Assembly: GCA_005406025.1 (NCBI GenBank)
Contig: BGZK01000015.1
Location: 124,001 to 188,000 of the forward strand
Reading direction: 5' to 3'
Length of the DNA: 64,000 nt
DNA from: Eumeta japonica
Lineage: Eukaryota > Arthropoda > Insecta > Lepidoptera > Psychidae
The notes under the pieces were generated by a model that was given only the letters and a program-made list of their open reading frames with translations, did no database searches and was not told the origin of the DNA. Position 1 is the first letter of the stretch; each line of letters starts with the position of its first letter. This document shows positions 1 to 63,011 of the stretch, in pieces. Position numbers and translations under genes: made by a program.

Positions 1-2179
1 GCACTCTCTGAAGAAAATCCCACCCAGGTAGTTTTGTAATTTATCCGTTCAATAGCTATTGTATTGCATGCACATCCAGTGCTAAGTATAAGTGTTTTAC
101 CCGTTCTATTCCTATGACCTAAGACCCTGGGCTACCTGTAACCAGCGATGGTCCGCGACCTTTTTCAGACCATCAGTTCACCCAATGGGAAACCGCCCTA
201 CGGCAAAATCTAGTCCAAGGTCGCTACTCAAAGACCATTGGATTTTCAGTGGTTTTTGATTCTATAAGCGATGTGGCCTAGTCCATTTAGCTCTTCTGTA
301 GATTTTGGGATTTTATCTTACAGACAAACCCTAAATTGTCCTACATGTGTAGGTGAATTTCATAAAATTTATGCTAACAGAACGCTGAAGAGTAAAAAGT
401 CGACTAATAATTTATTTCCATGAGAAAGAAGAGTTAACTCGGGAAGTAATGTGAATGGGGCCTTGCTTGCCCTTGTGAATAGTAAAAGTGCCTAACGAGA
501 AGTGCGTTTGGCTATCCATGAGTGGGTTCTGATTCCTATGTATGGTAGTGAAAGTTACATATGATGGAAGAAAAATGAACGTAGAATCAATGCAGTAGAG
601 ACACTAGAGATTGTGGCGGAATACGCCTTAGTAGTGAGGTCATTACAAATTGGAATGACGACCATATTAAAAAAAGATCAATATTTCAGATACAATTCAA
701 AAGAAACGCGTTGTATGATTTTGCTTTTTTCTATAACTAAATCTATATGAACATCAATTGTTAACCAGATTCTTAAAGTAAACAGTATACACATATTGGT
801 TTGGTCCACTTCTCTTTCAACAATATACAAGTTTTGTGACGGGTTTTCCGCATGTACCCTTAATTCTGACTAAGAAGTACCACTCCAAAGATACTTTTTT
901 CATTGCGTAATAGAGGAATTTAGAAATACACGTTTTTAGTCCTTTGTGTTTAATATATGATAGTTTATATTTTCTGACAGAAAACCCGAGAGATCGCAGA
1001 GGTGGCGTCCAAGGCGAGCGATCTATCGACGAAAATGCTGAACTCTGTGGATCCAGCGGCCAAGAGGCGCAGCAAATTACTTATGGTAAAGAAAGTTACG
1101 TCTGAATGCAATTTGAGACTAAAGGTCGTTAATAAGGCTTTAATGTCATATAGTCATCTGCATAACACGTTATTCTTCTTTTAAAAATTTTTTATACTTT
1201 TGTAAAAGCAAAAATCTTCATTTTTTTCCTGACTCAATAGTTACTGAATGGAAGGTGGTCTTGCTAACACTTCTGCATTTCGTGGTGCAATTAAAAATTG
1301 CATCATTAAATTTATCGAAGTCTACATATTATATTATATGGTTGCTAAGCCGTAATACTTGTTAACACTAAGAAATAAAAAATGTATTTTATTACAGTGC
1401 AGTAATCATTTTGAAAAATATAGCATGCATAGAAATATAATTTTTATACGATTTTAAAAAAGTACAAAAAAATCGTTGAGTACGTTCGTTGGTACATACG
1501 TTCTAGTACAGTCCAAGTTAGGGGATTGAAATAATAGAAAAGGAAAAGTTTTTAAAAAAACTTGAAAATTAACTAATCACATTTCACTTGTTAACTCATT
1601 GATAGTTAAAAGCGAATACGTGTTCGCGGTGTGTGATTCTGGAAGCTGCTACCTATTTATTATTGAAATCTTTATTTATAAACAAAATCATAAATAAATA
1701 TTTTGAGAACGATCCAACTAATAGAAACTCGTGAGTTTCGTAAACAAATTATTCCTACATTTTCATGTAAACAATTGGGGTCGTATTTCCATCATTTATT
1801 GGGCGGAGAGTTATTGTGATATTACTCGTTTATTTTATTTTTATATAACGCTACTGTACTAAAACTATACGATATTAAACATTTATTACAGTCGTCCAGA
1901 ATGAGTTTCATAGAAGAAGATTTAGCTGAATCTGAACGCGAGAAGCGATCGCTGCTGCTGGCACTAGGCAAAGCCAGAGAAAATTTGCTACGTCTTCTAA
2001 ACAATTTACACACGACGTAAGTTGGCACATTCGGTTAATTTTAATTTTAAGCCTTTAACATTATTCGGAATAAATTAAACATAAGCACACAACATATATA
2101 TATATATATCTATATATAATCTAAATTTGCGGTACAGAAAAAAAAAGTGAATAATAAATTCAGAATGTCATCAAATCAA
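1..2179 (+). CDS. Partial first module: exons before the first 'b' exon
   Basis: Exons: 1-27 (ALSEENPTQ, ends phase 0 before gtagtt), 981-1085 (35 residues, begins KTREIAEVASKASDLS), 1892-2016 (41 codons plus 2 nt, begins SSRMSFIEEDLAESEREKR) and a proposed 16-nt microexon 2164-2179. All are charged helical sequence. The stretch SEREKRSLLLALGKARENLL resembles the a-exon segment of later modules (AQNLRHKVKALRDLL). The 2016 donor leaves 2 nt, whereas the next clear exon (2430) needs phase 0; the microexon (one base to finish a Thr codon, then MSSNQ) repairs this with a cttcag-like acceptor and a gtataa donor. The f+a part is shorter here than in other modules, so an exon may be missing. Introns 28-980 and 1086-1891 show nothing recognisable. 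Confidence 0.55.

Positions 2180-63011: not shown

What the first reader, a model, noticed from the sequence alone, without database searches (positions are those of the whole stretch)
1..63011. Giant vinculin-family protein with a rod of repeated vinculin-D-like modules
The tail and last head domains are vinculin, yet at least 3,300 residues are encoded in frame here and the 5' end is still missing. Canonical vinculin is about 1,000 residues. The upstream exons form at least seven modules of about 270-280 residues sharing exon lengths and phases, giving a talin-rod-like array attached to a vinculin tail. I know of no described protein with this architecture, but could not search.
Basis: partly seen in the sequence, partly recalled or inferred. 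Interest (0 to 1): 0.9.

Follow-up and report, generated by a model that had tools for sequence, protein, structure and literature searches.

The report
Moth talin–vinculin fusion protein
This bagworm-moth DNA encodes most of a giant protein in which talin, which grips adhesion receptors at the cell surface, is permanently joined to the actin-gripping end of vinculin, normally its separate partner; many moths and butterflies carry the same gene, and it would likely act as a one-piece, stretchable anchor between membrane and cell skeleton.

Summary
The window is bagworm DNA (Eumeta, contig C14:124001-188000). It carries the rod and C-terminal part of one gene, about 84 kb long, that starts 21 kb upstream of the window with a complete talin FERM head. 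The repeated ~287-residue modules are copies of the talin rod R1R2 region, not vinculin D domains: a module profile has one strong site in lepidopteran talin (E = 2e-37). The exons that follow match talin collinearly to the end of R7R8; there vinculin D3-D4-tail begins. Talin's I/LWEQ actin-binding end and vinculin's D1 head are absent. Thirty named Lepidoptera species have annotated proteins with both a FERM head and a vinculin domain. Two more full-length frames sit on ~11.8-kb contigs with no room for introns, as in spliced mRNA. In 21 of 23 species the fusion lies on a contig of the same length as ordinary vinculin's. Module gain is recent in Eumeta, and Bombyx isoform models differ by exactly one module. 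My literature searches listed no paper describing it. I infer a force-bearing membrane-to-actin tether; no function was tested here.

The parts
1..63011 (+). In-window portion of the talin-vinculin fusion gene (coding region about C14:102,886-187,011; F0-F3 FERM head and first rod exons lie upstream of the window)
   Evidence: P0121 maps exactly on 78 blocks from -1446 to 63008; head exons by tblastn
1..1085 (+). End of the partial first R1R2 unit (exon ending at 27, and exon 981-1085)
   Evidence: class D and E exon profiles; exon map
2430..7982 (+). R1R2-like unit 1
9712..11718 (+). R1R2-like unit 2
11787..13094 (+). R1R2-like unit 3 (recent tandem copy; a 2-base length difference near 11,890)
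13095..14407 (+). R1R2-like unit 4 (recent tandem copy; a 1-base length difference in its D exon)
14478..15794 (+). R1R2-like unit 5 (recent tandem copy)
15863..17228 (+). R1R2-like unit 6
18581..27196 (+). R1R2-like unit 7
27358..47443 (+). Exons collinear with talin R3 to R7R8
   Evidence: profile-profile alignment of 27 species' segments to true talin 847-1671, E = 6e-32
47559..48566 (+). Two short exons at the talin-vinculin joint
   Evidence: exon map of P0121; same exons found by the predictor
49131..56745 (+). Vinculin D3-D4 exons
   Evidence: vinculin profile from position 381 in Eumeta; phases match canonical vinculin
58943..59029 (+). Remnant of the vinculin linker exon (29 residues; 79 in canonical vinculin, proline-rich there)
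   Evidence: exon map against canonical exon C14:81414-81650
59302..63011 (+). Vinculin tail (actin-binding end) and stop codon
   Evidence: PF01044 E = 8.7e-62; exon map

Best explanation
The window encodes most of a giant talin-vinculin fusion protein, found in many Lepidoptera, that likely works as a one-piece, stretchable tether from membrane receptors to actin. Shown by sequence: a talin FERM head (F0-F3), an array of R1R2-like rod units, a stretch collinear with talin R3 to R8, then vinculin D3, D4 and tail, in one chain of exons here and in single reading frames in relatives. Talin's C-terminal rod with its I/LWEQ module, and vinculin's D1 head, are absent. Inferred: the gene arose when a copy of the talin gene (head through R8) was joined to a tandem duplicate of the 3' half of the neighbouring vinculin gene. 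Inferred: the normally force-gated, non-covalent talin-vinculin contact is replaced by a covalent one, so the vinculin tail is always in line with the rod. Inferred: each R1R2 unit can unfold under load and pay out length, so the number of units (4 to 10 by species model, varied by whole units between annotated isoforms) sets reach and strain buffering. Untested: which receptor the head grips, and in which cells.
For: One gene: P0121 maps exactly on 78 blocks, one strand. In relatives, 30 named species plus two unnamed contigs have FERM-head and PF01044 domains in one protein (precomputed lists). P0142 (3,817 aa in an 11,856-base contig) and P0173 (3,863 aa in 11,877 bases) run from FERM_f0 to the vinculin tail in one frame, so they come from spliced RNA or an intron-free copy. 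Talin nature: head PF16511, PF00373, PF02174; the unit profile's best site in three lepidopteran talins printed is at residues about 561-810, E = 2e-37 to 2e-39, human talin-1 about 539-786; the middle part is collinear with talin 847-1671, E = 6e-32, ending at human about 1656, and Pfam's next talin rod segment starts at 1672. The stretch between the last strong unit and D3 is 774-878 residues in 27 of 27 species. Vinculin nature: first profile match at position 377-385 in 16 of 27 species, 351-368 in 4; 11 of 11 fully comparable exons keep canonical phases, 6 with identical length. Origin: 26 of 26 fusion rows form one clade (SH-aLRT 100), joined with 21 Lepidoptera vinculins (100) against 19 other insects; heads 31 of 31 one clade (99). 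Linkage: contig of the same length as canonical vinculin's in 21 of 23 species. Unit variation: Bombyx models differ by exactly 286 residues. R1 and R2 of human talin-1 unfold at about 25 and 15 pN, with steps over 20 nm (PMC9997659, section 13).
Against: No transcript, protein, localisation or binding data from Eumeta. In 29 of 29 non-Eumeta heads that cover the site, talin's R358-W359 pair is replaced by S/T plus Y/F; R358A and W359A reduce binding of human talin F2F3 to the beta3 tail, and W359A failed to rescue talin loss (PMC2958305, passages), so integrin binding may be altered or lost; Eumeta itself keeps RW. In 7 of 27 species the first vinculin-profile match starts earlier (193-305), so some D2-like sequence is not excluded there. 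The fusion evolves fast (vinculin part 45-74% identical over six species pairs against 80-92% for canonical vinculin), which may mean relaxed constraint. Two near-identical Eumeta copies hold small length differences that break the frame of an exon. Seven head-bearing gene models lack PF01044. Isoforms in species with 98-99% identical units could be mapping artefacts. Units are only about 20% identical to talin R1R2. The sturgeon talin model P0128 has two strong sites for the unit profile, not one (5e-25 each).
Confidence: 0.7

Rival explanations
1. Two neighbouring genes, a talin-like paralogue and a truncated vinculin duplicate, were merged by gene predictors.
For: Eumeta's own annotation split the head from the rest (P0121 begins after the head); seven head-bearing models lack PF01044.
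Against: Two open reading frames run from FERM_f0 to the vinculin tail on contigs hardly longer than themselves; the stretch between the last strong unit and vinculin D3 has a near-constant length, 774-878 residues in 27 of 27 species; the talin part lacks its own C-terminal actin-binding module and the vinculin part lacks D1, so neither would be complete alone.
Confidence: 0.05
2. The fusion is real but is not an integrin-actin linker: the head has changed its partner, and the protein serves as a cortical actin scaffold or competitor of talin and vinculin.
For: R358-W359 of the talin F3 site replaced in 29 of 29 non-Eumeta rows covering it, with a one-residue insertion nearby in many; R358A and W359A reduce integrin-tail binding of human talin F2F3 (PMC2958305, passages); fast evolution.
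Against: Eumeta keeps RW; the leucine at human L325 is kept in 29 of 30 rows covering it, methionine in Aphomia; W to Y or F keeps an aromatic ring; R358A talin still localised to adhesions; the F0-F3 head is conserved as a domain set.
Confidence: 0.25
3. The Eumeta copy is decaying and no longer makes the full protein.
For: A 2-base and a 1-base length difference in exons of two tandem copies.
Against: Both lie in near-identical repeats where assemblies commonly err (general knowledge); the rest of the predicted exons are open with usual splice sites.
Confidence: 0.05
4. One reading: a vinculin-family protein with a rod of vinculin-D-like modules.
For: The C-terminal part is vinculin.
Against: Modules hit talin R1R2 (E = 2e-37) and not vinculin; Pfam Talin_middle in 5 to 9 stretches of P0125, P0126, P0154 and P0173, though none in P0142; FERM head upstream.
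Confidence: 0.02

Closest known systems
Talin (Talin-1/2; fly rhea)
   Same: FERM F0-F3 head, R1R2, and a rod collinear through R7R8
   Different: R1R2 repeated several times; the C-terminal rod with the I/LWEQ module replaced by vinculin D3-D4-tail; a true talin is listed beside a fusion or fusion-head model in 19 species, on a contig of different length in 19 of 19
Vinculin (Vinc/VCL)
   Same: D3, D4 and tail with the same exon phases
   Different: No D1 (the talin-binding head) and no clear D2, linker cut from 79 to 29 residues, attached to talin
[quoted passage not shown]
   Same: A separate gene derived from part of the talin rod (R7R8) (PMC8287531, abstract and passages)
   Different: Single large exon, only R7R8-like, no FERM head and no vinculin part
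Ciona talin-a/talin-b and TLN1 exon 17b
   Same: Talin variants made by splicing that alter the actin-binding end (PMC1702346, abstract) or the R1R2 mechanics (PMC9997659, sections 11 and 13)
   Different: Alternative ends or one small cassette exon; no fusion to vinculin and no repeated R1R2 units described there

Membership tests
Talin | Four-lobed FERM head F0-F3 | tested here: met
   PF16511, PF00373, PF02174 in Eumeta exons; exons along the head located by tblastn
Talin | R1R2 rod start (Talin_middle) | tested here: met
   unit profile against true talin 561-808, E = 2e-37; PF09141 in P0125, P0126, P0154, P0173, not in P0142 at E 0.001
Talin | Rod R3 to R8 | tested here: met
   collinear profile alignment to talin 847-1671
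Talin | C-terminal rod with I/LWEQ module | tested here: not met
   no PF01608 or PF21865 in P0125, P0142, P0154, P0173; P0126, a model without PF01044, scores PF01608 (30.9 bits, cut-off 27.5), best stretch 2033-2114 inside its units
Talin | F3 integrin-binding R358-W359 | tested here: inconclusive
   RW kept in Eumeta, S/T plus Y/F in 29 of 29 other rows covering the site
Vinculin | D1 head that binds talin | tested here: not met
   first vinculin-profile match at 377-385 in 16 of 27 species, 351-368 in 4, 193-305 in 7; one weak extra match (8 bits) at 230-426 in Vanessa cardui
Vinculin | D3-D4 and tail | tested here: met
   PF01044 E = 8.7e-62 in Eumeta; profile matched to position 953-958 in 26 of 27 species, the Cydia pomonella model ending at 729
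Vinculin | Proline-rich linker | tested here: not met
   29-residue exon 58943-59029 without the proline runs of canonical C14:81414-81650
Talin or vinculin | Binding of integrin, F-actin, paxillin | not testable with these tools
   needs bench work

The most novel reading that the evidence does not exclude
Early in Lepidoptera the central bond of cell adhesion, the force-gated meeting of talin and vinculin, was made permanent by gene fusion. The result is a self-contained adhesion clutch whose length and force range are tuned by gaining, losing or splicing whole R1R2 units, perhaps dedicated to adhesive blood cells: a gene called talin-2 marks plasmatocytes in Bombyx wing single-cell data.
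Probability: 0.35. Interest if true: 0.93.

Novelty: new variant of a known kind. Interest (0 to 1): 0.86.

Why it matters
Talin and vinculin are the textbook pair of mechanosensing: force opens talin and vinculin then binds. A natural, conserved, covalent fusion of the two removes that step, so it is a ready-made experiment on what the gated bond is for. It also adds a titin-like feature, a rod whose unit number changes by whole modules between species and annotated isoforms, inside an adhesion protein. The gene is annotated piecemeal as 'Vinculin', 'talin-1-like', 'talin-2-like' or 'talin-B', so data on 'talin' in moths may be about the wrong gene.

Tried and rejected
Vinculin-D identity of the modules: rejected. 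Vinculin D1-D2 origin of the 27-47 kb exons: profile comparison with vinculin gave probability 0.6% and E = 0.09 against E = 6e-32 for talin. Vinculin-less isoforms as a real alternative product: of the seven models without PF01044, four match a relative to their last residues and three have unmatched ends of 25 to 103 residues; no common alternative end was seen by eye. H. virescens haemocyte 'Talin-2-like' as expression evidence: its table row gives 75% to a bumblebee sequence, so more likely true talin; not used (PMC4553588, passage). A conserved vinculin-binding helix in the units: hydrophobic positions are kept, but a bundle core would give the same, so no claim. Rfam scan of the window at gathering scores: 0 matches. 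Structure prediction was not run: the fusion proteins in hand exceed the length limit and the units are split by introns. Whether Eumeta has a true talin elsewhere did not complete: the genome search replied once and was busy at every later try. Protein searches were capped: 120 of 1,453 hits listed, 120 of 3,053, 6. Literature: the listings showed no paper describing such a fusion (open-licence PMC only, capped lists; some searches asked about blood cells and talin mechanics rather than the fusion itself, the direct phrases, returned 0).

Full report
Where it is. A vinculin search of the window's own genome places the window at C14:124001-188000 of a 702-Mb assembly. It finds vinculin-like exons at C14:64,768-92,807, at C14:183,299-186,064 (in the window) and on C45, and one weak match on C134. 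A protein search with the first of these returned Eumeta vinculin on a contig of exactly C14's length (P0001, 1,262,038 bases). The host is therefore Eumeta, a bagworm moth (Lepidoptera, Psychidae). Canonical vinculin lies at about C14:64.8-92.8 kb, some 31 kb upstream of the window.

The gene. An exon predictor trained on vinculin exons returned 20 exons of the canonical gene. Run over C14:93-187 kb it returned a chain whose upstream part was unexpected: lobes of a talin FERM head, at C14:102.9-120.2 kb. Pfam agrees (FERM_f0, FERM_M, IRS/PTB), and tblastn with relatives' heads places head exons from a start methionine at C14:102,886. The database protein P0121 (3,369 aa, named 'Vinculin'), which lacks the head, maps exactly on 78 blocks from window -1446 to 63008.

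What the parts are. A profile of the repeated unit, built from Eumeta and relatives (75 copies from 11 models), was run on 58 talins, of which I printed four. In the three lepidopteran ones it has one strong site each: P0186 561-808 at E = 2e-37, P0241 at 2e-39 and P0223 at 2e-37, the other sites scoring 24 bits or less. The sturgeon model P0128 has two sites at 5e-25. The site is human talin-1 about 539-786. That this is R1R2 is recalled; PDB entry 1sj8, named talin 1, covers the same stretch. Units average 20% identity to talin (143 units), which is why Pfam sees them in some models and not in others. The exons at 27-47 kb, with the matching segments of 26 relatives, are collinear with talin 847-1671 over 776 columns (E = 6e-32; vinculin E = 0.09). 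Talin 1671 is human about 1656. R7R8 spans 1357-1653 (PMC8287531, passage), and in talin P0186 Pfam's next rod segment starts at 1672. The vinculin part's first profile match is at 377-385 in 16 of 27 species, 351-368 in 4 and 193-305 in 7. Position 388 is near human 493-500, the start of D3 (boundary recalled). The early starts run back into the stretch that is collinear with talin, so I read them as over-extension over helical sequence, but some D2 is not excluded there. Both break points thus lie at or near domain boundaries. The stretch between the last strong unit and D3 is 774-878 residues in 27 of 27. Eleven of eleven fully comparable exons keep the canonical intron phases, six with the same length, so the vinculin part is a DNA-level duplicate with introns. 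The linker exon shrank from 79 to 29 residues.

One transcript? Not shown for Eumeta. For the family: 30 named species and two unnamed contigs carry FERM-head and vinculin domains in one protein (precomputed Pfam lists). P0142 and P0173 (3,817 and 3,863 residues) sit on contigs of 11,856 and 11,877 bases, so their 11.5-kb frames have no room for introns and must come from spliced RNA or an intron-free copy. Against: seven head-bearing models lack PF01044 (P0126, P0127, P0130, P0145, P0152, P0172, P0174). Four match a relative to their last residues; P0126, P0172 and P0174 have unmatched ends of 88, 25 and 103 residues. P0123 and P0121 lack the head in annotation; P0121's head is present in the DNA.

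Origin. In a tree of the vinculin part (66 rows, quick method, SH-aLRT only), the 26 fusion rows are one clade (100) and join 21 Lepidoptera vinculins (100) apart from 19 other insects. The Cydia pomonella fusion row was left out because its model is short. The tool warns that long branches meet, so the exact place inside Lepidoptera is open. In the head tree, 31 of 31 fusion rows form one clade (99), with a single fish talin as outgroup; the Arctia row is very long and does not cover F3. Fusion (or fusion-head) and canonical vinculin models have contigs of identical length in 21 of 23 species where both lengths are listed (exceptions Arctia and Papilio machaon), while true talin has a contig of different length in 19 of 19. 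Equal length is my proxy for the same contig. Among the 120 hits listed of 3,053 no fusion outside Lepidoptera appears; Trichoptera were not searched separately.

Unit number. Counting matches over more than 150 profile positions gives 4 to 10 units over 27 species models. Eumeta shows 6 this way and 7 by exon pattern plus a partial first. In Eumeta, tandem copies at 11.5-16.9 kb are 95.9-99.7% identical among the first three, introns included, and 82-85% to the fourth: recent duplication. One copy lacks exactly one intron. Bombyx models P0180, P0179 and P0178 differ by single deletions of exactly 286 residues; Manduca P0154, P0153 and P0151 by 288-289; S. frugiperda P0171, P0158 and P0155 by 293-299. 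Where units are 98-99% identical such isoforms could be mapping artefacts; in Manduca the seven middle units are 45-83% identical, which makes that less likely.

How it likely works (inferred). Head at the membrane, rod under load, vinculin tail on actin. In ordinary adhesions vinculin's D1 binds talin sites exposed by force (general knowledge); here D1 is absent and the link is covalent. With D1 gone, the main head-tail brake of vinculin (recalled) is missing, so the tail may be more open. Uncontrolled vinculin is harmful in flies, where the talin-binding D1 domain was the minimal lethal part (PMC5201009, abstract). R1 and R2 of human talin-1 unfold near 25 and 15 pN with steps over 20 nm (PMC9997659, sections 11 and 13), so a row of R1R2 units would pay out length under high load. 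Caution: the F3 pair R358-W359 is S/T-Y/F in 29 of 29 non-Eumeta rows covering it, though RW in Eumeta and in the 22 lepidopteran talins covering it. In human talin R358A and W359A cut binding of F2F3 to the beta3 tail; W359A failed to rescue talin loss while R358A nearly did (PMC2958305, passages). The receptor may therefore differ in most species.

Where it may act. In Bombyx pupal wing single-cell data 'talin-2' is listed as a plasmatocyte marker (PMC13373240, section 9 read). The longest Bombyx fusion model is named talin-2 and a sister model talin-1, so the marker may be this gene; I could not match identifiers.

Known or not. Sequence records exist under automatic names, but the listings of nine literature searches showed no description (not all aimed at the fusion). 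It fails a defining feature of both talin (I/LWEQ end) and vinculin (D1), so I file it as a fusion variant, not as a member of either.

Noticed in passing
12825-13209 against 14138-14592: One of the near-identical tandem copies lacks exactly the intron between its A and B exons, as if replaced from spliced RNA or by an assembly step.
   Followed up: partly
about 11,890 and 13,550: A 2-base and a 1-base length difference break an exon frame in two of the near-identical copies; probably assembly error in repeats.
   Followed up: partly
30516-31989: Tandem array of a 145-151-bp unit in an intron, partly in opposite orientations.
   Followed up: no
24028-24179: (AT)n tract of 75 copies in an intron.
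   Followed up: no
G000:C45:488827-535814, minus strand: Another vinculin-superfamily gene, possibly alpha-catenin or catulin, not classified.
   Followed up: no
G000:C134:215794-216057, minus strand: A weak vinculin-family hit with one stop inside.
   Followed up: no
G000:C14:86281-87513: Long open frames inside an intron of canonical vinculin, perhaps a mobile element.
   Followed up: no
P0001 (Eumeta canonical vinculin): The database model of canonical vinculin stops before the last tail exons, although they are in the DNA.
   Followed up: partly
P0124 (Bicyclus fusion): Its precomputed domain list also names PF08919, recalled as an F-actin-binding domain; not checked.
   Followed up: no
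Lepidoptera fusion heads, F3 lobe: All 29 non-Eumeta rows covering the site swap talin's R358-W359 for S/T plus Y/F; Eumeta keeps RW.
   Followed up: yes
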